Source: Pandoraea oxalativorans
GTDB taxonomy: Bacteria > Pseudomonadota > Gammaproteobacteria > Burkholderiales > Burkholderiaceae
DNA: 64,000 nucleotides
Direction of reading: 5' to 3'
NCBI RefSeq assembly: GCF_000972785.3
Contig: NZ_CP011253.3
Coordinates: forward strand, 5,332,001 to 5,396,000
Shown here piece after piece: positions 28,947 through 47,023 of this stretch. A program made the translations under genes and the position numbers. Position 1 is the stretch's first letter. The number at the start of each line of letters is the position of its first letter. The notes beneath the pieces are model-generated. The model was not told the origin of the DNA and did no database searches. It worked only from the letters and a program-made list of their open reading frames with translations.

Positions 28947-29409
28947 GGTCTCGTTGACAGGTCTGCCTAGAAGACTAGCTCGCGTGGCGACCGTGTCAAG
29001 GTTTCCAAGCTGATCCGCACCGTCAGGGCATTAAGCAGTCGTTTATAATAGCGGCAAAATATCCAGCGTTTTGGGCAGCCGGAATCTTCATGACCAAAGG
29101 CTGTCACATTCTGTATTGACATCGAACAAGGACTGTTTCGTTTTTCCGCTTGTTCGATCCTCGCTTGAGGTCGGTACGAGCGAATCCGGAAACATTCATG
29201 CACAATGCATCGTTTAGTGGCATTGGCCAATCGACGTGCAATTTTGTCGCTATGTATGCAATTTTTTGCGGCATACTGCGCAGCGTCCAAAAACCGGTGC
29301 CGCAGTCTTTCGAACCGTATTCTGAGCATTTTGGCCGCTTTTCGGCCGTTTTTAGTTTACGCAAATTTGCAGCTAAGGCGGATATCAACGTCCGACTGAC
29401 CACGAAGAG
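28947..29409. other. Low-GC intergenic region between coxB and the glycan region
   Basis: About 460 bases that mark a shift to lower GC. It must hold the coxB promoter (leftward) and the promoter of the KASIII operon (rightward). A TATAAT occurs at 29044-29049 without a good -35, and a TTGACA at 29116-29121 without a good -10. An inverted repeat is listed separately. I see no gene. Confidence 0.4.
29121..29158. repeat. 10-bp inverted repeat upstream of KASIII operon
   Basis: ATCGAACAAG (29121-29130) and CTTGTTCGAT (29149-29158) are perfect inverted copies around an 18-base T-rich spacer. It could be an operator, or a weak transcript-ending hairpin isolating the glycan region from the oxidase promoter. 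No T tract follows either arm. Confidence 0.4.
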
Positions 29410-30420
29410 ATGACGAAAGCTAAAGTTGCCGCCATTGCCACCCATTTCCCTGCCGATATCGTAAGTAACGAGGATTTGGCGGCGGTGTTTCCCGAGTGGA
29501 CGGCTGACAAGATCCTCGCAAAAACTGGCATTGCCGAACGCCGCATTTCTGCACCGGGAGAGACGGCCTCGGACCTCGCAGCCCTGGCGGCCGAAAAGCT
29601 CTTCGAATCGCATCATATCGATCGGGAGTCGATCGACTTTTTGCTGCTCTGCACGCAATCGCCAGATTTCATATTGCCGACAACCGCGTGTGTACTTCAG
29701 GAGCGTCTCGGGTTGCGGCAGGATGTCGGTGCACTGGACTTCAATTTGGGATGCTCAGGCTTCGTCTACGGACTGTCGCTGGCAAAAGGTTTGATTGAGA
29801 CGGGCAGCGCGCGACGGGTTCTGTTGCTGACTGCCGATACGTACACTAAGCTCATCCATCCAAAAGATAAAAGCGTCCGTACGATTTTCGGCGATGGCGC
29901 GGCAGCAACGCTTGTCGAAGCCGACCGTGGCGACGCCAGCGCTATTGGCCCTTTCATTTTCGGCACTAACGGCAAAGGCGCAAAGGATCTCATCGTCAAG
30001 ACCGGCGGCGCGCGCTCGGAACGCACCGAGGCAAGTGCCACGGAGTACAGCGACGAATCGGGCAATACGCGCACCGACGACAATCTCTTTATGGATGGCG
30101 GGGCCGTTATGGCCTTTACGCTGCGTGCCGTACCGGACGCCGTACGCCGATTGCTCGAAAAGGCCGAGTTGACGATTGACGACATCGATCATGTCGTTTT
30201 TCATCAGGCGAACACCTTCATCCTGGAGACTCTGCGCAAGAAGTGCCAGATTCCGGAAGACAAATTTGTCGTGCACATGAGCCATTGCGGCAATACCGTA
30301 TCATCGACGATCCCGATTGCACTGACCTCGCTGCCGCAGCCCGCGGATCGCCCGCGCCGGGTCATGGTCGTCGGTTTCGGCGTAGGGCTCTCTTGGGCCG
30401 GCACGATTATTGATTATTGA
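29410..30420 (+). CDS. 3-oxoacyl-ACP synthase III-type enzyme (FabH-like), first copy
   Basis: A 336-residue thiolase-fold ketosynthase III. The catalytic triad is intact: Cys115 in LGCSGFVYGL, His in VVFHQANTF and Asn in HCGNTVSST. Such enzymes condense an acyl-CoA with malonyl-ACP. The sequence is not the housekeeping FabH by context: it starts an operon with its own ACP (overlapping), a second KASIII, an SDR and sugar-modifying genes. The ATG at 29410 gives the usual N-terminus (KVAAIATHFPADIVSN). Lower GC and different codon use from the flanking oxidase and Sox genes suggest horizontal origin along with the glycan region. Confidence 0.88.
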   Translation: MTKAKVAAIATHFPADIVSNEDLAAVFPEWTADKILAKTGIAERRISAPGETASDLAALAAEKLFESHHIDRESIDFLLLCTQSPDFILPTTACVLQERLGLRQDVGALDFNLGCSGFVYGLSLAKGLIETGSARRVLLLTADTYTKLIHPKDKSVRTIFGDGAAATLVEADRGDASAIGPFIFGTNGKGAKDLIVKTGGARSERTEASATEYSDESGNTRTDDNLFMDGGAVMAFTLRAVPDAVRRLLEKAELTIDDIDHVVFHQANTFILETLRKKCQIPEDKFVVHMSHCGNTVSSTIPIALTSLPQPADRPRRVMVVGFGVGLSWAGTIIDY

Positions 30421-30439
30421 TTTACAGGGAGAGCAACAA

Positions 30440-30661
30440 GTGGAAAATTTTTACGCCGAACTCGCAGAAGTACTGGAAATCGACCCGGCAACCGTCGGCC
30501 CGGACATGGCGCTGGCAGAGCACAACTGGGACTCGCTTGCAATCGTCTCGACCATTGCCATCGTCGATGAAATCTTCAACGTGACCCTCGATGGCTCGGC
30601 CCTCGGCAAGTGCGAAAAGGTTTCGGACATCGAGGCTTTGATCGAGAAGGCCAAAGCATGA
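30440..30661 (+). CDS. Dedicated acyl carrier protein
   Basis: A 73-residue acidic four-helix carrier. The phosphopantetheine attachment serine is Ser32 in HNWDSLAIVS, the standard DSL motif. The start is a GTG at 30440 with GGGAGA eight bases upstream; an upstream TTG at 30410 would overlap the KASIII stop and add ten non-conserved residues. The stop overlaps the start of the next KASIII gene (ATGA at 30658). A separate ACP inside a glycan cluster implies a specialised acyl chain is made and held for local use rather than for membrane lipid synthesis. Confidence 0.88.
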   Translation: MENFYAELAEVLEIDPATVGPDMALAEHNWDSLAIVSTIAIVDEIFNVTLDGSALGKCEKVSDIEALIEKAKA

Positions 30662-31716
30662 ACAGTCGCTTGACGTTCGGTCGCGCAAGTCGCATCGACA
30701 ACATCGCCATTCGCGGTGTCGTGTCTGTGCTGCCGCGCAATGAAATCGACAACAAGGGGTTCGAAGCGCGCTTCGGCGCCGACGCTGTGCGCGATGTCGT
30801 CAAGATGATTGGGGTCCAGCGCCGCTACTGGGTTGATGACAAGACCACCGCGGCGGACCTCTGTTTGTACGCGGCACGTCGATTGCTGTCGAGCCTGGCA
30901 TGGGAGCTCGACACGATCGACGCCCTGGTTTTCGTTTCCCAGACACCTGATTACCGTCTTCCCGCTACGGCCTGCGCGCTTCACGGCCAACTGGGACTCG
31001 ACAAGGCTTGTGCAGCGTTCGACGTCAATCTGGGCTGTTCTGGCTACACCTACGGGCTGTGGCTGGCATCGACGATGATTGCCGGCGGTGCGCGCCGTGT
31101 CCTCTTGCTCGCAGGCGACACGATCACCCGAACGGTGTCGCCCGACGATCGGGCCACCGCAATGCTTTTCGGCGACGCAGGCACTGCGACGGCCATCGAG
31201 TTCGATGAACAGGCGCCGACCAGCACGTTCGTGATTGGCACCGACGGTGCCGGTGCAAAGAACCTGATTATTCCGCAAGGCGGATTCCGCACGACACTGC
31301 CGGAAGACCCCCGCCTGGAAGGCCGCGATCCCGCGTGCCTTTATATGGACGGCGGCGAGATTTTCAACTTCACGCTCAAGTCCGTACCGGGGCTGGTTGC
31401 CGACACGCTCCAATATGCTGGCCAAATGACTGACGATGTCGATGGATTCCTTTATCACCAGGCCAATGAGTTCATGCTCAAGCATCTGGCGAGAAAGTCG
31501 AAGATTCCAGCGGAAAAATTTCCGATCAATATCGGCGAGTATGGCAATACCAGTTGTGCGTCGATCCCACTATTGCTCAGCACGCGCTTACGCGACGCAC
31601 TGCGTGAACCCAAGCAACTCCTGATGGCCGGCTTCGGCGTCGGATATTCGTGGGGCTCCGCCCTCATGCGTGTGGGCCCTCTGGCATGTAACGAAACGGT
31701 GTTCCATGATCTTTGA
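30658..31716 (+). CDS. 3-oxoacyl-ACP synthase III-type enzyme (FabH-like), second copy
   Basis: A 352-residue KASIII, distinct from the first copy. The triad is Cys127 in LGCSGYTYGL, His in FLYHQANEF and Asn in EYGNTSCAS. Both copies keep all catalytic residues, so this is not an obvious degenerate duplicate. One may condense and the other might prime or transfer the acyl chain, since KASIII relatives also act as acyltransferases. The ATG at 30658 overlaps the ACP stop, and the 3' end overlaps the SDR start by 11 bases, indicating tight coupling. Confidence 0.87.
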   Translation: MNSRLTFGRASRIDNIAIRGVVSVLPRNEIDNKGFEARFGADAVRDVVKMIGVQRRYWVDDKTTAADLCLYAARRLLSSLAWELDTIDALVFVSQTPDYRLPATACALHGQLGLDKACAAFDVNLGCSGYTYGLWLASTMIAGGARRVLLLAGDTITRTVSPDDRATAMLFGDAGTATAIEFDEQAPTSTFVIGTDGAGAKNLIIPQGGFRTTLPEDPRLEGRDPACLYMDGGEIFNFTLKSVPGLVADTLQYAGQMTDDVDGFLYHQANEFMLKHLARKSKIPAEKFPINIGEYGNTSCASIPLLLSTRLRDALREPKQLLMAGFGVGYSWGSALMRVGPLACNETVFHDL

Positions 31717-32470
31717 TTCCAAGGCGCTGTCTGGTCAAACCTTCCTAGTCACCGGAGCGTCGTCGGGCATTGGGCGTGCGACGGCACAGCTGTTAGCGGC
31801 TTGCGGCGCAAGAATCCTCGCGATGGGGCGCGACGAAGCTCGCACCTCGGAGAGCGTGGGTTCGCTCGGCACGAACGCCGACCACGTCGCGATCATCACA
31901 GCATTCGAGGATGCAGATTCGGCTGCACAGCAGGTGAAAGAAGCCGCCGTCACCGCAGGTGGCGTTGACGGCATTTTTCATGCCGCTGGCCTAGAGCTGA
32001 TCCTGCCGGTCAAAATGACCAAGCAATCGAGTCTGGACAAGTTGTTTGCCGCGAGCGTGAACACGGCGTTCGGTATCGCTCGCGCAATGGCGATGAAGGA
32101 CGTGATTCGTGATGGTGGCTCGCTGGTCCTGATGTCGTCGGCGGCCGGTTTGCGCGGCCAGGCCGGCATGACAGCCTATTCGGCGTCGAAAGCGGCAATC
32201 GATGGTCTCTCGCGCTCGCTGGCTGTCGAACTCGCTCCCCGCAAAATTCGCGTGAACAGCGTCGCCAGTGGCGCGGTTGAAACTGCCATGCACGGACGTC
32301 TGGCGTCGAGCCTCCCGCCCGCTGCCATGCAAGCCTACGAGGAAAAGCATCTGCTCGGTTTCGGCAGGACGGAAGATATCGCTAACGCAGTGACCTTCCT
32401 TCTCTCCCCCGCTTCACGTTGGATCACCGGCACGACGATGGTTGTGGACGGTGGCTTTACGGTGCGCTGA
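31706..32470 (+). CDS. Short-chain dehydrogenase/reductase (FabG-like)
   Basis: A 254-residue classical SDR. The cofactor motif is TGASSGIG (residues 16-23), the active-site elements are SSAAG and YSASK (Tyr and Lys of the triad), and the C-terminal WITGTTMVVDGG is FabG-like. Next to KASIII and ACP, it most likely reduces a 3-ketoacyl-ACP to the 3-hydroxyacyl form; oxidation of a sugar carbon is the alternative. The start is the ATG at 31706, inside the end of the previous gene. Confidence 0.85.
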   Translation: MIFDSKALSGQTFLVTGASSGIGRATAQLLAACGARILAMGRDEARTSESVGSLGTNADHVAIITAFEDADSAAQQVKEAAVTAGGVDGIFHAAGLELILPVKMTKQSSLDKLFAASVNTAFGIARAMAMKDVIRDGGSLVLMSSAAGLRGQAGMTAYSASKAAIDGLSRSLAVELAPRKIRVNSVASGAVETAMHGRLASSLPPAAMQAYEEKHLLGFGRTEDIANAVTFLLSPASRWITGTTMVVDGGFTVR

Positions 32471-33105
32471 TGAAGCAATACGTCATCGTGGGCGGCGGTG
32501 GTTTTTGCCGTGAACTGATTTCCTGGATCCGGCAGATCAACGCCGGCGCGACGAAGGGAGAAGTCGTCGGAGTGCTTGACGACAATCCCGACTGCCTCAA
32601 CGGTTATGACTACGGCGTAGCCTACCTGGGCAAGCCAGCCGATTACCTGGCGCCAGCGGACGTCGAACTCGTCATGGCAATCGGCTCCCCGAAGGTGCGC
32701 GAACGGCTGGTTGGCATGCTCCGCGAACGCAACCCGGAAACCCGTTTTGGCACGATCGTCCACCCCAGCGCGGTCATTGCCGAATCGGCCCGCCTGGGCG
32801 AAGGCCTGATCGTCTGCCCACAATCTTTGATTTCTGCAGATGCGCAAGTCGGCCACTTCGTGACGGTCAACGCTTGTTCGTCAATCGGACACGATGCGAG
32901 CGTTGGCGACTTCTGCACGCTGAGCGCGCACGTCGACCTCATGGGGTTTTCGACGCTTGGCACCCGAACTTTCGTTGGCTCGGGTGCGCGGGTCATGCCC
33001 AGCGTCACCATCGGTGCGGATTGCACGCTCGGTGCCGGCACCACTGCGATGCGCCGACTGGCCGACGGCATGACGCTGTACGCGCCGCCGTCCAAAAAGA
33101 TGTGA
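32470..33105 (+). CDS. NeuD/PglD-like left-handed beta-helix acyltransferase
   Basis: A 211-residue sugar O/N-acyltransferase of the NeuD/PglD family. The N-terminal Rossmann-like part (KQYVIVGGGGFCRELISWI) binds the UDP sugar; the C-terminal part shows hexapeptide repeats (VIAESARLGEGLIVCPQSLISADAQVG, key units VIAES, LIVCP, AQVGH). The conserved catalytic His of PglD is in SIGHDAS. PglD acetylates the 4-amino group of UDP-4-amino-FucNAc-type sugars to give UDP-diNAc-bacillosamine. Here it sits directly behind the acyl-building genes, so it may use a longer acyl group. The ATG at 32470 overlaps the SDR stop (TGATG). Confidence 0.85.
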   Translation: MKQYVIVGGGGFCRELISWIRQINAGATKGEVVGVLDDNPDCLNGYDYGVAYLGKPADYLAPADVELVMAIGSPKVRERLVGMLRERNPETRFGTIVHPSAVIAESARLGEGLIVCPQSLISADAQVGHFVTVNACSSIGHDASVGDFCTLSAHVDLMGFSTLGTRTFVGSGARVMPSVTIGADCTLGAGTTAMRRLADGMTLYAPPSKKM

Positions 33106-33131
33106 CCCACAAAATTTTCGCGGAGCCATTC

Positions 33132-34133
33132 GTGTTAGAGCAACGCTTGTCTCGCCGGTATTGGCATCTGATCGGTCACCGTACCGAACTGCTGGCCGAC
33201 AATGACTTCCTTCGGCTGAACTGGGCTGATGGAGAGATTGTCCTGTTCAACGACCACGGCAATATCGTGGCGTTTGACAATCTCTGCCCGCACCGAGGGA
33301 CCCGCTTTTTCGTCGATGCACATGGCAATCACCCTGCGCATTGCGCCTATCATGGCTGGCGCTTCGAACACGGCACGGTCCATATACCCCAACCGCAGCG
33401 ATTCGCCCCGTGCGATCTCGCAAAGGCGAAACTCAACGAGTTTCGCGTTGAATGGTGCGCGGACTTCATGTTCATCGGCGTTGAACCGATCATGAGTCTC
33501 AGCGAACAACTGGGCGAAACGGAACAAGTGCTTGAGGAAATTTCGTTCAATATCGCGGGACGACACGATTTCAATCAATACGAATTCGAATGCAACTGGC
33601 GCATCGCATTGGAGAATGCGCTGGAGCCATATCACATCGACATGGTGCATCCGAATTCACTCGGCACGTTACGCCTTGAAGACGGCGAGAATGAATTTCA
33701 TGGCGTCAATTCGATTTGGCGAGCGCCGGTGGGGAATAGTCGCGTTGACAAGCAATTACGGGCCATGAACCGCTTGTTCAACATCGATTATCGCTACGAA
33801 GGGTATCAGAGCCTGTACATCTTTCCGTTCGCGATGCTCTCGTCGACGTACGGCTATTCGTACTCGCTGCAAAACTTCTTCCCGTCGACCAATCCCGAGC
33901 GAACGCATTTCACCAGTCGCTTGTTGACGGCACCGGTCATACCCGAGCGGCTGGCGACTGCGCAATCGTTTTTTGATTCCACAGCGCAGGTCAATCGGAA
34001 GGTATTCGACGAAGATCACCAGATTTGCAAACGCATTCCGACACGCGCGCTCGAGACGCATCTCACCCTCGCCGATAACGAAGCGAAAGTGCGACATTTC
34101 AGAGAGAGTTTGGCCGCGATCTCGGGCCGATAA
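33132..34133 (+). CDS. Rieske non-haem iron oxygenase (large-subunit type)
   Basis: A 333-residue oxygenase. The Rieske [2Fe-2S] site is CPHRG (Cys52, His54) and CAYHGW (Cys71, His74). The mononuclear iron site is in LEPYHIDMVHP (His-x4-His) with a distal acid. No reductase or ferredoxin gene accompanies it. The start is taken as a GTG at 33132 with GGAG seven bases upstream; a GTG at 33102 overlapping the previous stop (GTGA) is the alternative. As last gene of the KASIII-ACP operon it could hydroxylate or desaturate the acyl chain or the sugar. Such an enzyme is uncommon in polysaccharide clusters. Confidence 0.85.
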   Translation: MLEQRLSRRYWHLIGHRTELLADNDFLRLNWADGEIVLFNDHGNIVAFDNLCPHRGTRFFVDAHGNHPAHCAYHGWRFEHGTVHIPQPQRFAPCDLAKAKLNEFRVEWCADFMFIGVEPIMSLSEQLGETEQVLEEISFNIAGRHDFNQYEFECNWRIALENALEPYHIDMVHPNSLGTLRLEDGENEFHGVNSIWRAPVGNSRVDKQLRAMNRLFNIDYRYEGYQSLYIFPFAMLSSTYGYSYSLQNFFPSTNPERTHFTSRLLTAPVIPERLATAQSFFDSTAQVNRKVFDEDHQICKRIPTRALETHLTLADNEAKVRHFRESLAAISGR

Positions 34134-34146
34134 GAAGATTGGCGCT

Positions 34147-34171
34147 GTACGAGGTCTTCATGACCTCGTAC
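34147..34171. terminator. Hairpin between converging glycan operons
   Basis: GTACGAGGTC (34147-34156) and GACCTCGTAC (34162-34171) form a perfect 10-bp stem with a 5-base loop. It lies between the Rieske gene (ends 34133) and the WbpM gene (ends 34225 on the other strand). T tracts are weak on both sides, but position and stem strength fit a bidirectional terminator. Confidence 0.6.
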
Positions 34172-34224
34172 CCAATTTCACCGGCAGCCCTTCGTTGACA
34201 AACAAGCTGCTGGCGAGTTTGCGC

Positions 34225-36141
34225 TTAAGACACGGAGTGCACCGCACGTTGGTTGACCGTGTACAGATGGTCGCGAATTTCCGACTCCGGACGGAAACCC
34301 GACACGCAATTACGTAGCGTGTTGATGATGACGTCGTGTTTGTTGTTCCGGCACGCGTCGGCAAGAATCTCCAGCACTCCTTCCAGCTCTTTACGGCCAA
34401 TGAAGTGTTCGTTGGCCATCATGATCTTTGCGTGCGGCGTCCCGGTCACGTCATCGCCGATCAGCAATTCCTCGTAAAGCTTCTCACCAGGACGCAACCC
34501 GCTGAATTCGATGGCGATATCACCGTTATTGCGCCCCTCTTCCGCAACGGAAAATCCAGAAAGGTGGATCATGCGACGCGCCAGATCTACGATTCGCACG
34601 GGCTCCCCCATATCAAGCACGAAGACTTCCCCTGATGCCCCCATCGCACCGGCCTGAATCACCAACTGCGCAGCTTCAGGGATTGTCATGAAATACCGGT
34701 TGATTTCAGGATGCGTGACCGTCACGGGCCCGCCCGCGAGAATCTGCTTACGGAAAAGCGGCACCACAGAACCCGACGATCCCAGGACGTTGCCGAACCT
34801 CACCATACAGAACCGGGTCTTGACGCTCGGATCGTTGGCAAACGCCTGAAGCACCAGTTCGGCGAAGCGTTTTGTAGCGCCCATGACGTTGGTTGGGCGC
34901 ACGGCCTTGTCCGTGGATATGAGCACAAACGTGTCCACTCCCGCCGCGATCGCCGCTTCTGCGGCGGCTTTCGTGCCAAATGTGTTATTGAGCACGCCTT
35001 CAGTCATGTTGAACTCAACTAAAGGCACGTGCTTGTAGGCTGCGGCGTGATACACGGTCTGCACGCCATAGCGACGCATGATGTCCGTGACACGATCGCG
35101 ATTCTGTACCGAACCAAGTACCGGCACGATCTCGATGTCGCTGAATTCACGCTGACCGACGACCAGTTCCAATTCCTGCGCGATGGAATACAGCGCGTAC
35201 TCCGAAAGCTCATACAGAACCAAGCGGCGAGGACGCAGCAATACGATCTGTCGGCAAAGTTCCGAGCCGATCGATCCGCCAGCACCGGTGACCAAAACGT
35301 TCTTGTTTCGAACATTGGCCTCCAGTAGTCTCTGATCGGGCGGTACCGTTTCTCGTCCTAACAGGTCGTCGATCTCGATTTCTCGCACATCGGTCGCTCG
35401 TACCGTCCCGCCGACCAGATCGGCCATCCCCGGAATCGCCCGCACTTCCACCCGCAACGCTTCGAGCTTATTGATGATTTCAATGCGGCGGCTACGTCCG
35501 GCCGACGGAATTGCCAGCAGAATCTGCTCAACCTGGAAGCGGTTGACCAACTTCGGCAAATCCTTGGGATCGCGCACGCGCAGGCCCATGATTTCCAGAC
35601 TGTGCAGCGCGGGATTGTCATCCACAAACATGATCGGCTGATATTCCTTGCCTGCACGTAACGCCACGGCCAACTGACAGCCAGCACTCCCCGATCCGTA
35701 AATGATGACAGCGCGACCACGCTCGGAAGGGCGCCAGTTCAACAGCGCCGCGCGTGCAAGAAGGCGGCTTCCCACGATGTAGACGACGGAAATCACCCAG
35801 TAAATGAGCAACGCGCCTCGTGGAACCGGCGGCAGAATCAGCAACGTCAACGTGCCCGCGAACGCCCACACGGAAAGCGTCACGGCAAGCACAATCATGA
35901 GCATCGCGCGCGTACCCATAAACCGCACGACTGCGCGATACAAGCCAAGGCACATGAATATCGGGATCGCCAGTGCGGATGTCAGAACGTACACCCACCA
36001 GGCGTGGATTTGCGGGAACTGCCAAAGTTCGAGACGCAGTCCGATGGCGGTCCACAATGATAACGGCAGCAGAATGGCATCCGCTGCGGCCATCACGGTG
36101 ATCTTTGCACTACGCGGCAGATTCACGATCATACTGAGCAT
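34225..36141 (-). CDS. wbpM: Membrane UDP-GlcNAc 4,6-dehydratase (WbpM/PglF/CapD type)
   Basis: A 638-residue inner-membrane protein. The first ~135 residues hold four hydrophobic helices; then a CoA-binding-like domain (GSGSAGCQLAVAL) and the SDR dehydratase domain with NAD motif GAGGSIGSELCRQ and active-site STDKAVRPTNVMGATKR, where Met replaces the usual Tyr as in WbpM/PglF. It makes UDP-4-keto-6-deoxy-GlcNAc, the substrate for the adjacent aminotransferase. It is the last gene of the ten-gene minus-strand operon, starting 5 bases after the aminotransferase stop. Confidence 0.92.
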   Translation of the reverse strand: MLSMIVNLPRSAKITVMAAADAILLPLSLWTAIGLRLELWQFPQIHAWWVYVLTSALAIPIFMCLGLYRAVVRFMGTRAMLMIVLAVTLSVWAFAGTLTLLILPPVPRGALLIYWVISVVYIVGSRLLARAALLNWRPSERGRAVIIYGSGSAGCQLAVALRAGKEYQPIMFVDDNPALHSLEIMGLRVRDPKDLPKLVNRFQVEQILLAIPSAGRSRRIEIINKLEALRVEVRAIPGMADLVGGTVRATDVREIEIDDLLGRETVPPDQRLLEANVRNKNVLVTGAGGSIGSELCRQIVLLRPRRLVLYELSEYALYSIAQELELVVGQREFSDIEIVPVLGSVQNRDRVTDIMRRYGVQTVYHAAAYKHVPLVEFNMTEGVLNNTFGTKAAAEAAIAAGVDTFVLISTDKAVRPTNVMGATKRFAELVLQAFANDPSVKTRFCMVRFGNVLGSSGSVVPLFRKQILAGGPVTVTHPEINRYFMTIPEAAQLVIQAGAMGASGEVFVLDMGEPVRIVDLARRMIHLSGFSVAEEGRNNGDIAIEFSGLRPGEKLYEELLIGDDVTGTPHAKIMMANEHFIGRKELEGVLEILADACRNNKHDVIINTLRNCVSGFRPESEIRDHLYTVNQRAVHSVS

Positions 36142-36146
36142 ATTGT

Positions 36147-37322
36147 TTAGCGCGCGGCCGCCGTCAATACCTCTTCCAGTTCGCGGCAGACAAACGCCAT
36201 CTCGTCGTCGGTCAACGTGGGATGCACCAGGAACATCAGGCTCGTGTCGCCCAATTCTCGTGCAACTGGCAGACGCTCTTCAGGCCGCCAGCCAGTGTTG
36301 TCGAACGCTTTCTCCAGATAAACCTCCGAACACGATCCCTGATAAGCAGGCACGCCCCTCGACGTCAGCGCCTCGATGATCTTGTCCCGGGTCCAACCGT
36401 CGCGCAAACGCTCAGGGCGAACAAAGACATAGTGCTTGTATTCGGCATGCTCAATATCAGCCGGAATGGCAGGCACACGAACCACATCGTGTTTGCGCAG
36501 TACCTCGTCTAGCCGTGCCGCGAGCGCCTGGCGCCGCGCCTTCCACGTATCGAGTCGGCGCAATTGAATGCGGCCAATCGCCGACTGCATTTCGGTGATT
36601 CGCCAATTGGTGCCGAACGATTCGTGCAGCCAGCGGAACCCCGGCGGGTGTTGCTTCTCGTAGACTGCGTCGTACGACTTGCCGTGGTCTTTGAATGCCC
36701 AGGCAGCCTTCCACCAATCGGTGTTGTCCATCGTGAGCATGCCGCCCTCACCACCAGTCGTCATGATCTTGTCCTGACAAAACGACCATGCACCCATGTG
36801 CCCGATAGTGCCGACGTGGCGCCCCTTGTACTTGGCGCCATGCGCCTGCGCACAATCCTCGATCACATACAGATTATGCGCTTCGGCGAGCGCCATGATC
36901 GGGTCCATGTCGCAGGGCCAGCCGGCCAGGTGAACACAGAGAATTGCCTTGGTCCGCGACGTGATAGCGGGCGCAATGGTTTGCGCCGTAATGTTCTGCG
37001 AGTCCCGATCGACATCGACAAAGACGGGAATCGCTCCCGCATTGATCACCGAGCTGGCGGAGGCAAGGAAAGTACGCGACGTCACGATGACCTCGTCACC
37101 CGCGCCGATGCCCAGAACATGGAGCGCAAGATCTAGCGCAAGTGTGCCATTCGCCAACGCGATGGCGTGCCGAGACCCAATGTATGCGGCGAATTCCTTT
37201 TCGAATTCGCGGCTTTCCGAGCCCGTCCAGTAATTAACCTTATTCGAGCGGAGGACAGCGGCAACGGCCTCTACTTCGTCTTCCGAATAGCTGGGCCAGG
37301 GAGAGAGTCGAGTATTGAGCAT
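36147..37322 (-). CDS. DegT/DnrJ/EryC1 PLP-dependent sugar aminotransferase (PglE/WbpE-like)
   Basis: A 391-residue sugar aminotransferase. The Schiff-base lysine is in WSFCQDKIMTTGGEGGML, aspartate for the PLP ring is in IEDCAQAHG, and the N-terminus starts LSPWPSYSEDEVEAV. With the WbpM-type dehydratase following and the PglC-like transferase preceding, it should aminate C4 of UDP-4-keto-6-deoxy-GlcNAc to give a bacillosamine-type precursor. The open frame extends to 37460, but the ATG at 37322 matches the family N-terminus and avoids overlapping the upstream gene. The product stereochemistry (bacillosamine versus 4-amino-FucNAc type) is not readable. Confidence 0.88.
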   Translation of the reverse strand: MLNTRLSPWPSYSEDEVEAVAAVLRSNKVNYWTGSESREFEKEFAAYIGSRHAIALANGTLALDLALHVLGIGAGDEVIVTSRTFLASASSVINAGAIPVFVDVDRDSQNITAQTIAPAITSRTKAILCVHLAGWPCDMDPIMALAEAHNLYVIEDCAQAHGAKYKGRHVGTIGHMGAWSFCQDKIMTTGGEGGMLTMDNTDWWKAAWAFKDHGKSYDAVYEKQHPPGFRWLHESFGTNWRITEMQSAIGRIQLRRLDTWKARRQALAARLDEVLRKHDVVRVPAIPADIEHAEYKHYVFVRPERLRDGWTRDKIIEALTSRGVPAYQGSCSEVYLEKAFDNTGWRPEERLPVARELGDTSLMFLVHPTLTDDEMAFVCRELEEVLTAAAR

Positions 37323-37377
37323 CTGACGGTTCTGGGAGAGTCTGTCGATTAATGTAATGTTCTTGTCGCGATCGGCG

Positions 37378-37986
37378 TCAGGGCCGCTTCGTCTCGGCCT
37401 GACTGCCTTTGAACGCGGGCATTGTGGCCTCACCGGCAGCGGAGATGCCATCACGGGCAAACACTTTCTTAACGGTGAGCAACAGGATCTTGATATCCAG
37501 CGCGAATGACTGGTTGTCTACGTACCAGACATCCAGACGGAACTTGTCGTCCCACGAAATCGCGTTACGACCATTGACTTGCGCCCATCCTGTAATGCCC
37601 GGACGTACTTCGTGACGCCGCGCTTGCTCGGGACTGTAGAGCGGCAGGTAGGCCGTGAGGAGCGGACGTGGCCCGACAAGGCTCATGTCACCTTTGAGCA
37701 CATTCCAAAGCCCAGGCAATTCATCCAGACTGCTGCTGCGCAAGAACTTGCCAAAACGCGTCAAGCGCTCGCTATCCGGCAGGAGGTTACCGTCCTTGTC
37801 TCGCGCATCCGACATACTACGGAACTTGCACATCCGAAACGGTTGGCCATCCTTGCCCGGACGGACTTGCCGGAACAATACGGGGCGACCCAATGCAATC
37901 GCGACCCAGACCGAAACAACCAACAGTATCGGACTCAGTGCAATCAACGCGCACAGGGCGACAAGAAAATCAAAAGTCCGCTTCAT
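37378..37986 (-). CDS. Undecaprenyl-phosphate sugar phosphotransferase, PglC-like initiating transferase
   Basis: A 202-residue small monotopic phosphoglycosyl transferase that loads the first sugar-1-phosphate onto undecaprenyl phosphate. It has a single N-terminal re-entrant hydrophobic helix (FLVALCALIALSPILLVVSVWVAI), PFRMCKFRSM, the catalytic Asp-Glu pair in SLDELPGLWNVL, MSLVGPRPLL and RPGITGWAQVNGRN. Small size without extra helices is PglC-like, which prefers bacillosamine-type sugars and fits the neighbouring dehydratase and aminotransferase. Its ATG overlaps the stop of the preceding glycosyltransferase (ATGA at 37983-37986). Confidence 0.9.
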   Translation of the reverse strand: MKRTFDFLVALCALIALSPILLVVSVWVAIALGRPVLFRQVRPGKDGQPFRMCKFRSMSDARDKDGNLLPDSERLTRFGKFLRSSSLDELPGLWNVLKGDMSLVGPRPLLTAYLPLYSPEQARRHEVRPGITGWAQVNGRNAISWDDKFRLDVWYVDNQSFALDIKILLLTVKKVFARDGISAAGEATMPAFKGSQAETKRP

Positions 37987-39218: not shown

Positions 39219-39281
39219 TTCATTGCCATCCTGTAACCGGCCGTGCTGCTCAGGTTATGCTTTGCTTGTTGACGACACGGC

Positions 39282-40415
39282 TCAGACAGTCTGGCGCCAA
39301 ACAGTGCGCCGGACATAGTCGGTGTAGCTGAGGATAATGCGCAGAACTTTGTCGGAAACGTTGGGCATGCTGTAATCGGCCACTTGTCGGAGCAGACGAT
39401 TCTCGCCGCGCGGCTGGTCCGCAAGGATCGCCAGCGCCTGCAACACTCGGTCAGCATCAACGCCCGTCATCATGACGGAGGCCTCTTCCATGCCTTCCGG
39501 GCGCTCGTGCGCTTCGCGGATATTGACGGCCGGGAAGTTCAGAATCGACGATTCTTCCGTAATCGTCCCGCTGTCCGAAAGCACCGCTCTTGCGTCGCGC
39601 TGAAGCCGGATGTAATCCAGGAAACCTAGAGGCTTGAGTAACCGGACGTTGGGCGCAAATGTCAGCCCGGCCGCTTCGATGCGCTTCTTCGTACGCGGGT
39701 GCGTCGACACGATCACTGGTTCGCCATAGGCATTCGCAACCGCGTTGAGCGTTTCGCCAAGCTTGGCGAGATTCACGGGCGAATCGACGTTTTCCTCGCG
39801 GTGCGCACTGACCACGAAATACTTGCCGGCCTCGAGACCCAGCTCGCCCAGTACGTTGGAGCTGTCGACCTTCGGCGCGTAATGCGTCAGCACCTCAAAC
39901 ATCGGGCTCCCGGTCTTGATAACGCGATCCGGTGGCAATCCTTCGCGCAGCAAATACTCCCGCGCGATATCGCTGTACGTCAGGTTGATGTCCGAGGTAT
40001 GGTCAACGATACGACGGTTGGTTTCTTCCGGCACGCGCTGGTCGAAGCAACGATTCCCCGCTTCCATGTGGAAAATCGGGATTTTGCGGCGCTTTGCGGG
40101 GATGGCGGCGAGGCAACTGTTCGTATCGCCCAGCACCAGCACGGCATCCGGGCAAACCGATTCCATCACCCGATCCGCCGCAATGATGACTTTACCAATC
40201 GTTTCCGCGGCATTCGCACCCGCAGCGTTCAGGAAATGGTCCGGCCGACGCGCCTCGAGATCGCGAAAGAAGATTTCGTTGAGTTCGTAATCGTAATTCT
40301 GGCCCGTATGAACAATGACATGATCGCAATACTGGTCCAGACGCGCCATCACACGCGAGAGTCGAATGATCTCAGGACGTGTCCCGAGAACGGTCATCAC
40401 TTTCATTTTGCGCAT
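39282..40415 (-). CDS. fnlC: UDP-N-acetyl-L-fucosamine synthase, 2-epimerase (FnlC/WbjD type)
   Basis: A 377-residue WecB-fold epimerase. Motifs are [61 protein letters not shown] and VSAHREENV. It performs the last step to UDP-L-FucNAc (2-epimerisation of UDP-PneNAc). FnlC/WbjD is distinguished from WecB mainly by context, and here fnlA and fnlB lie just upstream on the same strand. The ATG at 40415 comes 4 bases after the fnlB stop, with AAGGTG upstream. Confidence 0.88.
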
Positions 40416-40418
40416 GAC

Positions 40419-41525
40419 TTACACCTTGTGCGCTACCGTATCGGGTCGCGAACGATCAAAAATTTCATTTGCCCACAGCATCACGACCATTTCATCTTCA
40501 CCGATGTTGGTGATGTCATGCGCCCAACCCGGCACCGTTTCCACGATTTGAGCCTTCTCGCCACTCACTTCAATTTCGAGGCGCTGACCTGACACGATGT
40601 GGCGAAACCCGAAGCGGGCGCGCCCCTTGATGACGAGGAATTTTTCGGTTTTGGAATGGTGATAGTGACCACCGCGCGTCACCCCGGGATGGGCTGTGAA
40701 ATACGAAAACTGCCCTGCATCGGGTGTCTTGAGCATTTCCACGAAAACGCCACGTGCATCGCCGTACATCGGAACATCGTAAGCGAAATCATCGTCCGGC
40801 AAAAAGCTCACGTAAGTCGAATACAGCGCACGCACGAGGCCTGTACCGACACGTTCGCTCACCAGCGAATCTCGGCTCTGTCGGAATGCGCGAATCTGAT
40901 CCGCGAGTTCACCGACCGTCGTCTCGTAAACCGGGCTGACATCGACGAATCCGGGCGCGGGCGCATTGTCGGCGAGCAGCGCCAAAAATGCCGCACAAAC
41001 GTCATCGACATAGACCATACGCACCTTGGCGTCCGGCGCGTGAATCTCGATCGGCAAGCCGCGTGCAATGTTGTGACAAAAAGTGGCGACCGCCGAGTTG
41101 TAGTTCGGGCGACTCCATTTACCGAAAATATTCGGCAACCGGTACAGATACACTGCGGCGCCGGTGCGCTGCGCGTACGCCTGCAAGGCCAGTTCAGCGC
41201 CGACCTTGCTTTGCCCGTAAGGATTCTCCGCTGTGGCCTGAGTCGACGAGGTGTAGGCAACGGGCACCTTGCGGCCAGTCGCTACCAACTTCTCAACTAA
41301 CGTTTGCGTGAAATCGACGTTGCCCGAGACAAATTCGTCGGGTGACTTCGGACGATTGACGCCCGCAAGATGGAACACGAAGTCCGCATCGCGCAGGCCA
41401 GCGTCGAGCGCTTCGTCCGACGTGTCGCGACCAACACGCACCAATTCATGCCCGCCCATCTCCTCGAGATGGACCAACAAATTCCTGCCGACAAAACCGT
41501 TCGCACCGGTCACAACGATCTTCAT
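40419..41525 (-). CDS. fnlB: Bifunctional C3-epimerase/C4-reductase for UDP-L-FucNAc (FnlB/WbjC/CapF type)
   Basis: A 368-residue two-domain enzyme. The N-terminal SDR domain begins VTGANGFVGRNLL with NPYGQSKVGAELAL as active-site Tyr/Lys; the C-terminal ~110 residues are a cupin with the metal-binding HYHHSKTEKFLVIKG segment. This pairing is diagnostic of CapF/WbjC. It works between FnlA and FnlC. The ATG at 41525 follows the fnlA stop by 4 bases; an upstream start at 41570 would overlap fnlA and is not conserved. Confidence 0.9.
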   Translation of the reverse strand: MKIVVTGANGFVGRNLLVHLEEMGGHELVRVGRDTSDEALDAGLRDADFVFHLAGVNRPKSPDEFVSGNVDFTQTLVEKLVATGRKVPVAYTSSTQATAENPYGQSKVGAELALQAYAQRTGAAVYLYRLPNIFGKWSRPNYNSAVATFCHNIARGLPIEIHAPDAKVRMVYVDDVCAAFLALLADNAPAPGFVDVSPVYETTVGELADQIRAFRQSRDSLVSERVGTGLVRALYSTYVSFLPDDDFAYDVPMYGDARGVFVEMLKTPDAGQFSYFTAHPGVTRGGHYHHSKTEKFLVIKGRARFGFRHIVSGQRLEIEVSGEKAQIVETVPGWAHDITNIGEDEMVVMLWANEIFDRSRPDTVAHKV

Positions 41526-41529
41526 CGGA

Positions 41530-42576
41530 TCACTCCTCCGGCTGAGCGTCTTGCCCTGCTTGCAAAGCACGCATAAATGCGAGCTTCTGCAACAGCACCT
41601 TCATGCCAGCGATGTCCAGGCGCTCGGTGTTGTGGGAGTTGTAGTCCTCTGCAGTCGAAATACTCGTCTCGCCTTGTTCGACATACTTGCCGTAGTTGAG
41701 ATCACGCAGGTCAGGCGGAACACGATAGTAGTCGCCACGATCTTCCGCGGCCGCAAGCTCTTCTCTGCTAAGCAACGTTTCATACAACTTTTCGCCGTGA
41801 CGCGTACCGATCACGTTGATCGGATGCTCGGGCTTGCCAAGCATTTCTCGAAGCGCGCGCGCGAGCGTCTCTACCGTCGCCGCCGGCGCCTTCTGAACAA
41901 AGATGTCGCCGTTACGACCATGCTGGAAAGCGTAAAGCACCAGTTCCACCGCGTCATCGAGCGTCATCATGAAACGGGTCATCAGCAGATCAGTCACCGT
42001 GATCGGCTTACCGTCGCGCATCTGCTGCACGAACAACGGGATTACCGAACCACGCGATGCCATGACGTTGCCGTAGCGCGTGCCGCAAATCACCGTCTTG
42101 TTGTCGTCCGCCGAGCGCGACTTCGCGACCATGACCTTTTCCATCATGGCTTTCGAAATGCCCATCGCGTTAATGGGATAGACAGCCTTATCGGTACTCA
42201 GGCAGACAACGCGCGACACGCCGCTTTGGATCGCCGCTTCGAGCACATTTTCCGTACCCATCACGTTGGTCTTAACCGCTTCCATCGGATGAAACTCACA
42301 CGACGGAACCTGCTTCAGTGCAGCCGCATGAAACACGAAGTCCACGCCGCGAATCGCATTGATCACCGAAGCCGGATCGCGGACGTCGCCAATGTAGAAC
42401 TTGAGCTTGTCGCTGTTATAGCGCTTGCGCATGTCGTCCTGCTTCTTTTCATCGCGACTGAAAATACGGATTTCACCGATATCAGTATCGAGAAAGCGGC
42501 GCAGTACCGCATTGCCAAACGAACCCGTGCCGCCGGTAATCAACAGCACTTTGTTTTTGAACGAACTGATACTCAT
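41530..42576 (-). CDS. fnlA: UDP-GlcNAc 4,6-dehydratase/5-epimerase (FnlA/WbjB/CapE type)
   Basis: A 348-residue soluble SDR dehydratase. The NAD motif is TGGTGSFGNAVL and the active site is STDKAVYPINAMGISK, with Met in place of Tyr. The C-terminal GTRHGEKLYETLLSREE segment is typical of CapE/FnlA. It starts the three-step conversion of UDP-GlcNAc to UDP-L-FucNAc. Its start overlaps the polymerase gene by four bases (42573-42576), so the genes are translationally coupled. It differs from the WbpM paralogue at 34225 by lacking the membrane domain. Confidence 0.92.
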   Translation of the reverse strand: MSISSFKNKVLLITGGTGSFGNAVLRRFLDTDIGEIRIFSRDEKKQDDMRKRYNSDKLKFYIGDVRDPASVINAIRGVDFVFHAAALKQVPSCEFHPMEAVKTNVMGTENVLEAAIQSGVSRVVCLSTDKAVYPINAMGISKAMMEKVMVAKSRSADDNKTVICGTRYGNVMASRGSVIPLFVQQMRDGKPITVTDLLMTRFMMTLDDAVELVLYAFQHGRNGDIFVQKAPAATVETLARALREMLGKPEHPINVIGTRHGEKLYETLLSREELAAAEDRGDYYRVPPDLRDLNYGKYVEQGETSISTAEDYNSHNTERLDIAGMKVLLQKLAFMRALQAGQDAQPEE

Positions 42577-43727
42577 TGTAAATGGGCCTCAAATCTTCGG
42601 TAATACTCAAGCGTTCTGCCGAGCCCGTCCCCAATATCTCCCGTGAATTTGTATTCGAGATATGAGTAGTACGGTATGTAAGGCTCGATCAGAGGGTTTA
42701 CTAGTTGATAAACAAGCGCCGAGACAACAAATGCCAACGACGTCGACGCTACAACCGTTCGCACAACGATCGGCTGCATCGAAACAGCCTGATATAGCAG
42801 AATCGCCTGCGGAAGCACTGCGAGATACTGCGCGCGGTTCCAGAAAATCGGAAAATCGAACAAGAGACCTTGAAATGCGATCTGAAGAATTATCGCACCG
42901 AAAAGTAGCTCCTGAAACCGACTGCGCTCCGGGAGCCGTTTATTGACCCACAGGAAGATCCCACAGTTTACCAGCAGGTAGGCGATGGCCCCGGGAGAGC
43001 GTTCGAACGCCCCCGTCGACGCGTAGATGGCGGCCTTCTCCGAGATGAACGACAAACTTAGCTTGGACAACGCCTCGAGTGCGAGGGATGCGACACCAAT
43101 GCCGAGTGCGTAAAACAGAAGTACGACGCCGACGAACAAAACGGGACGCCTCATCACGAAGCGAACGCCCTTACGCCAATATACGAAAAAATAGATAACG
43201 CTGGAATATTGAAATCCAACGCCTATAACACTACAGAACATCGCCATATTGTTGCGGCCACGGGACGCATACATCATTCCGATCATGAACATTGAAACGG
43301 CCAATGACTGACGGAACACGCCCATTTGCAACGGCAGATACACAAGGCAAAAATAAAAAGCGCAACAGAAAACGAGATCGGCTCGGGCGAGCTTTACAAA
43401 TCGATACAAAACCCAAATATTGAACGTGGCGATCACAACCAAAAGGACCTGAAAACTCCCAGTCATCTTTGCCACAACAATATTCAGCAACACATACAGT
43501 GGCTCCATCGGCACCATTCCGGAACCGTCACCTATGTAATCCGGAGCGTACTGATCAAAGAATGCTTGATAGACGAGCCAATCGTAGCCCGTGCGGTATC
43601 GCAACGCGGCCAGCGCCCATAGCGCGAGAACAGCAAGCGCCCCGAGCGAGAGGATTCGCTTTCGCCATACAACCTGCACCAGCGCAGCAATGCTGAGGAC
43701 GAATGCGATAACGAGATAAAAACTCAT
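42573..43727 (-). CDS. EpsG-family membrane protein, probable O-antigen/capsule polymerase (Wzy)
   Basis: A 384-residue polytopic protein with about ten hydrophobic segments. It has the EpsG-family features RYRTGYDWLVYQAFFDQY near the N-terminus (periplasmic loop after helix 2) and YLPLQMGVFRQSLAVSMFM (the FRQ motif). This family contains Wzy-type polymerases. Wzy proteins vary strongly, so function is drawn from topology, the GYDW...RQ pattern and its place between glycosyltransferase and sugar genes. It is lower in GC than its neighbours. Confidence 0.78.
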   Translation of the reverse strand: MSFYLVIAFVLSIAALVQVVWRKRILSLGALAVLALWALAALRYRTGYDWLVYQAFFDQYAPDYIGDGSGMVPMEPLYVLLNIVVAKMTGSFQVLLVVIATFNIWVLYRFVKLARADLVFCCAFYFCLVYLPLQMGVFRQSLAVSMFMIGMMYASRGRNNMAMFCSVIGVGFQYSSVIYFFVYWRKGVRFVMRRPVLFVGVVLLFYALGIGVASLALEALSKLSLSFISEKAAIYASTGAFERSPGAIAYLLVNCGIFLWVNKRLPERSRFQELLFGAIILQIAFQGLLFDFPIFWNRAQYLAVLPQAILLYQAVSMQPIVVRTVVASTSLAFVVSALVYQLVNPLIEPYIPYYSYLEYKFTGDIGDGLGRTLEYYRRFEAHLQ

Positions 43728-43739
43728 AGACGCTCGGAC

Positions 43740-44939
43740 TCAGTGAATCTGAGCGACGATTTGTGGGGCCGTCATTTTCGCTTGAAAATACTTGCGCCCA
43801 TTCTCGCCCAACTCCCGACGGTGACTTTCCGACGCACACAATTTGGCAAGGTTTTCCTGAATACGCTCGAATTGTGTCGTGACCGAAGAATACCCCCCAT
43901 GGATATCGTTTTCGAGAATTTCAGAGTAGTCAGTTGCAGCCTCCACTGCACCGAGAATAGGAAGCCCCGCGCGGAAGTAGTCAATTGACTTTGAAGGAAA
44001 GGTCGGCACGCTGACGGTTCCGGAGTTGAAAACAACGCCGATGTCGCACGCCGTTAAGAACGTGAGATATTCGTCGCGCGGAATTTTTCCCAGATACCGC
44101 ACATTCGATAGTGCAGGTTCAGTCAAACGCGCCTTAAGATAGCCCTCCAGCGGCCCGCTTCCAGCGATCGCGAAGATCACTCCCGGGCAGCTTTCGGAAG
44201 ATGCTTCCGCCAGCCTGAGTAAAAGTTCGATGCCCCGACCGGGAATCAGCTGACCGCCAAAAATCGCGACAACGGCGTCCTGAGGCAAGCCATAACGCCC
44301 GCGAATTTCCTTTCGATCACCCTCGCTAGCCAGTGCCTGCGGCCCCCACAGAGGAAGCACCTCCACCTGTCCTGCAAACGTGGGAGTCTCTTTCCAAAAG
44401 TAGGGAATGTTGGCCGGCGACATCACGCCGACCGTGTCGAACTGCTTGATCGCAAGCGTTTCCATGCACTTGGCGATCCTGAAGATTGGTCCAGCAGGAA
44501 TGAGGCCGAGTTCATGGTGATACCTGGGAAAGAAATCCCACAGGACCATGTACTTCCGTTTCGGCTTGAGGCGTTTGAGCAAATGGCGTTGAACCCAGAA
44601 TGCCGTTGACGCAGGAGAAAACCCCACAAAAAGATCGTAAGGCTCCACAGCCAGATGCTGATCGACATACGGAATCGCCGCGCGCGATGCCCAAAACCAC
44701 TTATACATCTTCTGCAAACTCGCCGGCAATCTGCGCACCGCCGACAAGTCAATGGGAGTGTTAATCACGCGCACGTTTCCGTACATCGCAAGTACTTGCG
44801 AATGCGATTGCCCAGACCAGTCAACGCATACCACCGTAACATCGTGTTTGGCGCTCGCATAAGCTGCCGCCAAATCGTTGGTCAGCCACCCGTCTGACTC
44901 AACGGTGGAAAACTTGGTGCAGAGAATCAATACTCTCAT
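43740..44939 (-). CDS. Family 4-like glycosyltransferase
   Basis: A 399-residue GT-B glycosyltransferase. The N-terminus MRVLILCTKFSTVESDGWLTND is a typical acceptor-domain start; the donor domain begins VVAIFGGQLIPGRGIELLLRLAEAS and includes LRYLGKIPRDEYLTFLTACDIGVVF-like segments (LGKIPRDEYL) and SKSIDYFRAGLPILG. Sugar and linkage are unknown. The ATG at 44939 has GAGGGAAC upstream; the TTG at 44951 is weaker. Confidence 0.82.
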   Translation of the reverse strand: MRVLILCTKFSTVESDGWLTNDLAAAYASAKHDVTVVCVDWSGQSHSQVLAMYGNVRVINTPIDLSAVRRLPASLQKMYKWFWASRAAIPYVDQHLAVEPYDLFVGFSPASTAFWVQRHLLKRLKPKRKYMVLWDFFPRYHHELGLIPAGPIFRIAKCMETLAIKQFDTVGVMSPANIPYFWKETPTFAGQVEVLPLWGPQALASEGDRKEIRGRYGLPQDAVVAIFGGQLIPGRGIELLLRLAEASSESCPGVIFAIAGSGPLEGYLKARLTEPALSNVRYLGKIPRDEYLTFLTACDIGVVFNSGTVSVPTFPSKSIDYFRAGLPILGAVEAATDYSEILENDIHGGYSSVTTQFERIQENLAKLCASESHRRELGENGRKYFQAKMTAPQIVAQIH

Positions 44940-45018
44940 CCGTTCCCTCAATCTTTCGCCAACCGGGAAAATCGGCGATTACATATATCGTTCGACTTGA
45001 AAACACATTGCCCCGGTG

Positions 45019-46843: not shown

Positions 46844-46919
<76 letters not shown>

Positions 46920-46932
46920 ACACGAAGCTCCG

Positions 46933-46938
46933 ATTATA
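46933..46938 (-). promoter_or_regulatory. -10 box of the tRNA-Ala gene
   Basis: TATAAT on the minus strand, 13 bases upstream of the tRNA 5' end at 46919, the normal distance for a short tRNA leader. The -35 is not clear. Confidence 0.55.
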
Positions 46939-46980
46939 GCGATTTTTCTCAGCGCGGCGAGCAGCCGACAAAATTGCTCG

Positions 46981-47005: not shown

Positions 47006-47023
47006 CTGTGATTTCAAGGCGCT

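What the first reader, a model, noticed from the sequence alone, without database searches (positions are those of the whole stretch)
29410..34133. KASIII-ACP-KASIII-SDR-acyltransferase-Rieske cassette: a possible dedicated acyl-sugar system
Six overlapping genes provide everything needed to build a short chain on a private ACP (two condensing enzymes with intact Cys-His-Asn, a FabG-like reductase), transfer it to a nucleotide sugar (NeuD/PglD-like), and oxidise it (Rieske oxygenase). It converges on an operon that makes a 4-amino sugar, the natural target of PglD-type enzymes. The likely outcome is a bacillosamine-type sugar carrying a modified acyl group such as hydroxybutyryl instead of acetyl. 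I recall comparable KAS/ACP/reductase sets in Pseudomonas flagellin-glycan islands, but not this full arrangement with two KASIII and a Rieske enzyme.
Basis: inference. Interest (0 to 1): 0.85.

Follow-up and report, generated by a model that had tools for sequence, protein, structure and literature searches.

The report
Acyl-sugar gene cassette with Rieske oxygenase
Six linked bacterial genes probably build a small hydroxylated acyl chain on its own carrier protein and attach it to an amino sugar of the cell surface or flagellum; the basic recipe is known from a fish pathogen, but the oxygen-using enzyme that accompanies it here appears to be an undescribed extra step.

Summary
In detail: KASIII-A, ACP, KASIII-B, SDR, NeuD/PglD and Rieske oxygenase genes, all open, fill 29410-34133 and face an O-antigen operon for L-FucNAc and a 4-amino sugar. 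The acyl-sugar reading is well supported. The first five genes match the Flavobacterium psychrophilum wfpC-wfpG set, whose sugar carries 3,5-dihydroxyhexanoyl, so a six-carbon dihydroxy chain (one condensation per KAS) is likelier than hydroxybutyryl. The Rieske gene is the part I found undescribed. In 398 sampled Burkholderiaceae genomes it occurs in the same 11 as KAS-A: eight flagellin-type islands beside vioA and a GT41 transferase, two Pandoraea O-antigen loci, one Ralstonia pickettii. The two KAS form separate clades apart from FabH. I infer that the Rieske enzyme hydroxylates the chain, predicting residues of 291.13 Da (Qui4N) or 332.16 Da (QuiNAc4N). A 291.1 Da glycan is reported on flagellin of Burkholderia pseudomallei, which has a Rieske homologue; but other compositions share that mass, and the reported fragments do not obviously fit. 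No chemistry is tested. New variant of a known kind.

The parts
29410..30420 (+). KAS-A, beta-ketoacyl-ACP synthase III paralogue, Cys-His-Asn intact
   Evidence: Pfam PF08545/PF08541; clade with support 97/94 apart from FabH; PDB relative 3gwa 420 bits
30440..30661 (+). dedicated acyl carrier protein, 73 aa, DSL site
   Evidence: PF00550 28.5 bits; GTG start read
30658..31716 (+). KAS-B, second KASIII paralogue, Cys-His-Asn intact
   Evidence: PF08545/PF08541; clade 99/98; PDB relative 4efi 431 bits, whose printed residues are 100% identical over 346 to the Paraburkholderia xenovorans KAS-B of L008
31706..32470 (+). SDR, ketoacyl-ACP reductase-like
   Evidence: PF13561; FabG models below their cut-offs
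32470..33105 (+). NeuD/PglD-type N-acyltransferase, His141 conserved
   Evidence: TIGR03570 above cut-off; only such match in the genome; His141 invariant in 7 aligned
33102..34133 (+). Rieske non-haem iron oxygenase alpha subunit
34147..34171 (.). hairpin between the converging operons
   Evidence: fold z-score -3.82; not listed by the terminator scan
34225..36141 (-). WbpM/PglF-like membrane nucleotide-sugar 4,6-dehydratase
   Evidence: PF02719 + PF13727
36147..37322 (-). DegT/PglE-like sugar aminotransferase (start by comparison with relatives; the ORF as listed runs to 37460)
   Evidence: PF01041; 64% to the Ralstonia pickettii protein
37378..37986 (-). PglC-like initiating sugar-phosphate transferase
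   Evidence: PF02397
37983..39218 (-). WcaI/WbuB-like glycosyltransferase
   Evidence: NCBIfam PRK10307 183.6 bits, below cut-off 276
39282..40415 (-). FnlC-like 2-epimerase
   Evidence: TIGR00236 229.5 bits, above cut-off 210.15
40419..41525 (-). FnlB/WbcJ (start chosen by me; the ORF as listed runs to 41570)
   Evidence: NF047837 613.5 bits, above cut-off 500
41530..42576 (-). FnlA
   Evidence: TIGR04130 657.9 bits, below cut-off 730
42573..43727 (-). EpsG-family membrane protein, likely O-antigen polymerase
   Evidence: PF14897; role inferred
43740..44951 (-). glycosyltransferase
   Evidence: PF00534
45019..46305 (-). Wzx-type flippase
   Evidence: PF01943/PF13440

Best explanation
The cassette is a portable module that makes one unusual N-acyl group for a 4-amino-4,6-dideoxy sugar. 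KAS-A and KAS-B each perform one condensation with malonyl units on the private ACP, and the SDR reduces each keto group, giving ACP-bound 3,5-dihydroxyhexanoyl or a close relative. The Rieske oxygenase adds a further hydroxyl (or oxidises a hydroxyl) on this aliphatic chain, on the ACP or after transfer. NeuD/PglD transfers the chain to the 4-amino group of UDP-QuiNAc4N in this genome, which then enters the FucNAc-containing O-antigen; in Burkholderia and Paraburkholderia the acceptor is dTDP-Qui4N for flagellin. Shown here: gene content, intact active sites, conservation, co-occurrence, context. From published chemistry of other systems: the type of acyl group. Inferred: chain length, division of labour between the two KAS, the acceptor sugars, and the Rieske reaction, its timing and its substrate.
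For: Same gene kinds and, as the names wfpC-wfpG run, the same order as in F. psychrophilum, in a cluster with pglE/pglF and three genes for UDP-L-FucNAc, in strains whose O-PS has L-FucNAc and Qui2NAc4N with 3,5-dihydroxyhexanoyl (PMC6519341, passages). Only NeuD above cut-off in the genome. Rieske and KAS-A found in the same 11 of 398 sampled Burkholderiaceae genomes; six-gene order kept in these, apart from one split over contigs with the SDR unseen and one decayed copy. Two KAS clades apart from FabH, with members in more than one phylum. Both KAS, SDR, Rieske and NeuD also recur beside a VioA relative in other orders in L016 and L131. R. pickettii: cassette about 12.7 kb from a WbpM-aminotransferase-NeuD-PglC-GT-FnlCBA cluster. 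One KAS-A relative is listed with a Bac_transf domain in the same protein (P0297). Predicted Qui4N residue 291.13 Da against a reported 291.1 Da flagellin glycan in B. pseudomallei (PMC3958885, passages), a species with a Rieske homologue (P0123).
Against: No product has been measured. R. pickettii holds a second, resident NeuD in its O-antigen cluster, so there the cassette may serve another acceptor. [quoted passage not shown] the Neu5Ac residue has nearly the same mass (291.095). I could not compare sequences with WfpC-WfpG. One-KAS relatives exist in both KAS clades (L013, L128-L130 for B; L133, L134 for A, in the stretches read), so clade alone does not tell chain length. The Rieske fold does not point to an aliphatic substrate: CntA ranks first but naphthalene and terephthalate dioxygenases are tied. 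No electron-transfer partner lies in the cassette.
Confidence: 0.5

Rival explanations
1. Hydroxybutyryl system: only one condensation occurs, the second KAS is a partner subunit or a priming enzyme, and the Rieske enzyme acts on the four-carbon chain, for example giving dihydroxybutyryl.
For: One-KAS islands in Pseudomonas syringae make 3-hydroxybutyryl-viosamine. KASIII heterodimers such as PqsBC are known (recalled; PqsC appears among the PDB relatives).
Against: Both KAS keep Cys-His-Asn and form separate clades with members in more than one phylum; the F. psychrophilum two-KAS set accompanies a C6 chain.
Confidence: 0.2
2. The Rieske enzyme modifies the sugar or another glycan part rather than the acyl chain, in the way CMP-Neu5Ac hydroxylase (recalled) acts on a nucleotide sugar.
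For: Genomic linkage only; the Rieske gene overlaps neuD in the window and is the last of the six in the Burkholderiaceae copies read.
Against: It keeps company with the acyl genes on two different acceptor pathways (WbpM type and VioA type), the acyl cassette being the shared part; in L016 and L131 it lies among the acyl genes.
Confidence: 0.2
3. The cassette serves a separate lipid or natural product, not the glycan.
For: In R. pickettii it stands about 12.7 kb from the O-antigen genes.
Against: NeuD/PglD is a sugar N-acyltransferase family; in 10 of the 11 Burkholderiaceae genomes it adjoins O-antigen or flagellin-island genes; in the two Pandoraea genomes that have it, it travels with the O-antigen cluster between coxB and soxB.
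Confidence: 0.08

Closest known systems
Flavobacterium psychrophilum O-PS R-group genes wfpC-wfpG (PMC6519341, passages)
   Same: Two ketoacyl-ACP synthases, ACP, ketoacyl reductase and PglD homologue, names running in the order KAS-ACP-KAS-KR-PglD, in a cluster with pglE/pglF and genes for UDP-L-FucNAc; sugar Qui2NAc4N
   Different: No Rieske gene is mentioned in the passages I read; the supplementary gene table was not available; sequences not compared
Pseudomonas syringae viosamine island vioA-vioM-vioT-vioS-vioB-vioR-acp (PMC3927599, passages)
   Same: ACP + KASIII + reductase + acyltransferase making a 3-hydroxyacyl group for a 4-amino-4,6-dideoxy sugar on flagellin
   Different: One KAS, a methyltransferase, no Rieske in the seven-gene list; product 3-hydroxybutyryl
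Campylobacter PglF-PglE-PglD bacillosamine pathway
   Same: 4,6-dehydratase, aminotransferase and PglD-type transferase on a UDP-sugar
   Different: PglD there makes the N-acetyl sugar (stated in PMC6519341); no ACP machinery (recalled)
Carnitine monooxygenase CntA / YeaW and stachydrine demethylase
   Different: About 18% identity; aromatic oxygenases are tied in Z; the glycine betaine model NF058607 scores 62.4 against a cut-off of 670; no reductase in the cassette

Membership tests
wfpC-G-type two-KAS acyl-sugar module | KAS-ACP-KAS-KR-PglD gene set | tested here: met
   against passages of PMC6519341; the order there is inferred from gene letters
wfpC-G-type two-KAS acyl-sugar module | located with pglE/pglF-like and UDP-L-FucNAc genes | tested here: met
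wfpC-G-type two-KAS acyl-sugar module | sequence orthology to WfpC-WfpG | not tested
   sequences not available; a search with a Bacteroidetes KAS-B listed no entry named F. psychrophilum among the best 120; a Bacteroidetes locus (L014) holds one KAS of each clade
wfpC-G-type two-KAS acyl-sugar module | 3,5-dihydroxyhexanoyl product | not testable with these tools
   needs glycan chemistry
Viosamine island (one-KAS) | a single KASIII, and vioA | tested here: not met
   two KAS in the window; VioA matches in this genome 33-34%
Housekeeping FabH (TIGR00747) | score above the curated cut-off 292.1 | tested here: not met
   232.7 and 188.5 bits
NeuD/PglD/VioB transferases (TIGR03570) | score above cut-off and the His taken as catalytic | tested here: met
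   174.0 vs 160.8; His141 invariant in 7; its catalytic role is recalled
Rieske oxygenase alpha subunits | 2Cys-2His cluster, 2His-1Asp iron site | tested here: met
   invariant in 47 aligned sequences
Glycine betaine monooxygenase (NF058607) | curated model cut-off | tested here: not met
   62.4 vs 670; that it works likewise is not excluded

The most novel reading that the evidence does not exclude
A Rieske oxygenase family dedicated to surface-glycan N-acyl groups hydroxylates a 3,5-dihydroxyhexanoyl chain (on ACP or on the nucleotide sugar) to a trihydroxyhexanoyl group. This module decorates both O-antigens and flagellins in Burkholderiaceae and explains the unassigned 291.1 Da flagellin glycan as Qui4N-trihydroxyhexanoyl (C12H21NO7, 291.132).
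Probability: 0.25. Interest if true: 0.75.

Novelty: new variant of a known kind. Interest (0 to 1): 0.6.

Why it matters
If right, gene content (number of KAS, presence of the Rieske gene) would predict the mass of an unusual sugar substituent, giving exact numbers to look for: 231.11, 275.14, 291.13 Da on Qui4N or 272.14, 316.16, 332.16 Da on QuiNAc4N. It would add aliphatic acyl hydroxylation for glycans to the Rieske enzymes, tie two crystal structures deposited as 3-oxoacyl-ACP synthases (4efi, 3gwa) to glycan biosynthesis, and offer a testable identity for an unassigned flagellin glycan.

Tried and rejected
Paper searches in the held library (10 of 10 used). Rieske + O-antigen + acyl carrier protein + hydroxybutyr: 0. 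Rieske + flagellin + glycosylation island: 0. Rieske + flagellin + glycosylation: 10 listed; I searched passages of one, an aromatic dioxygenase context (PMC12322963), and saw the other nine only as listings. Dihydroxyhexanamido + O-polysaccharide: 3 listed, one used. Viosamine + acyl carrier protein + flagellin + glycosylation: 0, although PMC3927599 turned up later under other words, so such zeros are weak. Searches gave 4, 4, 16 and 2 papers. Most subscription papers are not held, so absence from print is not shown. The original flagellin paper (J Bacteriol 2011) is not held; I quote it through a review (PMC3958885) and a citing paper (PMC4365494, passages).

KASIII acting as a CerJ-like ester transferase was put aside because Asn of the triad is kept; that CerJ has Asp there is recalled. 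Residues at FabH pocket positions (Phe87 of E. coli FabH is Leu in both window KAS, Trp32 is absent in both) suggest a changed starter site but do not give chain length; the positions' roles are recalled.

Rieske tree: the 18-row core clade is sound (100/99), but the deeper place of the L015, L016, L131 and Azospirillum enzymes is unresolved. Two own-genome rows in it (L137, L139) were wrong-frame longest ORFs of mine with very long branches; I dropped them. L015_R1 lacks the cluster motif in my alignment and is uncertain. The KAS tree holds 40 rows taken from a chosen part of the loci; L014, L015 and L016 A-type rows have long branches.

The promoter/terminator scan is no better than shuffles. 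Wider searches find the cassette genes thinly: KAS-B in 3 of 101 relatives (E <= 1e-60) and 6 of 274 genomes of the class (E <= 1e-55), Rieske in 1 of 399 of the order, although the protein database lists relatives named Roseateles, Rubrivivax and Acidovorax. Thresholds (1e-60; 1e-90) differ, the second chosen to keep out the paralogue. Of the 77 loci, 6 carry matches to all six genes, 4 carry some, and 67 show only KAS with or without SDR. The B. glumae GT41 protein has no match in 3 genomes (window, G005, R. pickettii), without a positive control in that call. Not shown: whether B. thailandensis (300/342 Da) or B. cenocepacia (3-hydroxybutanoyl, recalled) carry the cassette; an intact copy in B. 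thailandensis would count against the mass idea.
Full report
WHAT IS THERE. Six genes on the + strand fill 29410-34133: KAS-A (29410-30420), ACP (30440-30661), KAS-B (30658-31716), SDR (31706-32470), NeuD/PglD (32470-33105) and Rieske oxygenase (33102-34133). Four of the five junctions overlap. Active-site residues are intact in both KAS, in NeuD (His141) and in the Rieske enzyme; the ACP keeps its DSL site. Base composition drops from about 0.62-0.67 to 0.52-0.61 G+C over roughly 29-47 kb, so cassette and polysaccharide operon look like one island. The facing operon on the - strand holds a WbpM/PglF-like dehydratase, a DegT aminotransferase, a PglC-like transferase, two glycosyltransferases, FnlA, FnlB and FnlC, an EpsG-family protein and a Wzx-type flippase. 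This is an O-antigen-type cluster for L-FucNAc plus, by inference, a QuiNAc4N-type sugar. A strong hairpin lies between the operons.

THE GENOME. The genus is most likely Pandoraea: the best named Rieske relative is from P. apista at 83%, and one same-genus genome has 1.2 Mb, the size I recall for Ca. Pandoraea novymonadis. In the window and five further genomes of the genus that I looked at (G005, G012, G020, G026, G027) COX2 and SoxB homologues flank a stretch of differing content with some matches to sugar genes; I did not annotate those stretches further. The cassette is in the window and G005 only. Genus-wide the Rieske gene is in 2 of 32 genomes (E <= 1e-30). G005 carries the whole cluster and cassette at 83-98% protein identity, with dN/dS 0.010-0.100 over 16 genes; dS is 0.7-1.8, near saturation.

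DISTRIBUTION. Of 398 Burkholderiaceae genomes sampled, 11 hold the Rieske gene (E <= 1e-60) and the same 11 hold KAS-A (E <= 1e-90). In these the six genes keep one order; in G772 they are split over two contigs and the SDR was not seen, and in G630 several genes are in pieces. Eight of the 11 have GT41/TPR transferase and VioA homologues before KAS-A, and seven of these eight show FliC, FliD and FliT before that; in G630 VioA and GT41 are fragments. Burkholderia glumae plasmid pBGF3 shows the same series with annotation: flagellin, fliD, FliT, tetratricopeptide protein, vioA, ketoacyl-ACP synthase, acyl carrier protein, SDR, acetyltransferase, Rieske. KAS-B there is unannotated and matches in two pieces in different frames, so it may be broken in that record; the near-identical G728 copy reads as one open frame. 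Two of the 11 are the Pandoraea O-antigen type. The last, G528, lies on a contig of the same length as the Ralstonia pickettii SSH4 record; its cassette is about 12.7 kb from a cluster with FnlA, FnlB, FnlC, glycosyltransferase, PglC, a second NeuD, aminotransferase and WbpM.

OUTSIDE THE FAMILY. A Pirellula contig (L015) has ACP, KAS-B, a Rieske-like gene, SDR and KAS-A. Two Azospirillum plasmid loci (L128, L130) have a Rieske oxygenase (annotated SRPBCC), SDR, GNAT and KASIII; L128 also flagellin and pseI, L130 neuB. A third (L129) has KASIII without a Rieske match. A Bacteroidetes locus (L014) has both KAS without a Rieske match, and a Desulfovibrio locus (L013) has one KAS without it. The KAS tree puts KAS-A (97/94, 12 rows) and KAS-B (99/98, 18 rows) in separate clades, apart from the group with E. 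coli FabH; two A-type rows (L015, L016) were not resolved. The protein database gives 528 Rieske relatives at E <= 1e-20; the 120 listed are 51-90% identical, many from metagenomes.

WHAT IT DOES. Two published systems frame it. In Pseudomonas syringae, vioA, vioS (one KASIII), vioR, vioB and acp belong to the island for 3-hydroxybutyryl-viosamine on flagellin (PMC3927599, passages; structure in PMC12915359, one passage). In F. psychrophilum, wfpC and wfpE (two KAS), wfpD (ACP), wfpF (reductase) and wfpG (PglD homologue) accompany an O-PS with L-Rha, L-FucNAc and Qui2NAc4N bearing 3,5-dihydroxyhexanoyl, and the authors propose a fatty-acid-synthesis-like route (PMC6519341, passages). The window has the gene kinds of the second set plus a Rieske gene. 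My reading is one condensation per KAS, two reductions by the SDR, and transfer by NeuD, the only such enzyme above cut-off in this genome. The reactions are inferred from family and precedent.

VERDICT. Observation confirmed. Acyl-sugar module: about 0.85. C6 dihydroxy chain: about 0.55. Rieske acting on the chain: about 0.55. The steps are not independent; all together, in the loose form stated, 0.5 at most. New variant of a known kind.

Noticed in passing
window 28947-47023: The stretch between coxB and soxB seems to be an O-antigen exchange site: in the window and five other genomes of the genus looked at, COX2 and SoxB flank stretches of mostly differing content (window and G005 alike).
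   Followed up: partly
L153:9951-10601: The Ralstonia pickettii O-antigen cluster has its own NeuD besides the cassette NeuD, so two acyl groups may compete or serve different sugars.
   Followed up: partly
L128:1-987 and L130:5167-6300: Azospirillum proteins annotated 'SRPBCC family' are Rieske oxygenases in islands with KASIII, GNAT and nonulosonate genes.
   Followed up: partly
P0297: A 557-aa metagenomic protein is listed with KASIII domains and a Bac_transf (sugar-phosphate transferase) domain; possible fusion or assembly error.
   Followed up: no
L012 and L144: A symbiont Paraburkholderia carries a decayed copy of the flagellin island and cassette.
   Followed up: no
L127:17432-18524: KAS-B on Burkholderia glumae plasmid pBGF3 is unannotated and matches in two pieces in different frames.
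   Followed up: no
L133, L134: KAS-A-clade enzymes; apart from a weak SDR match in L134, no matches to the other cassette genes in the stretches fetched.
   Followed up: no
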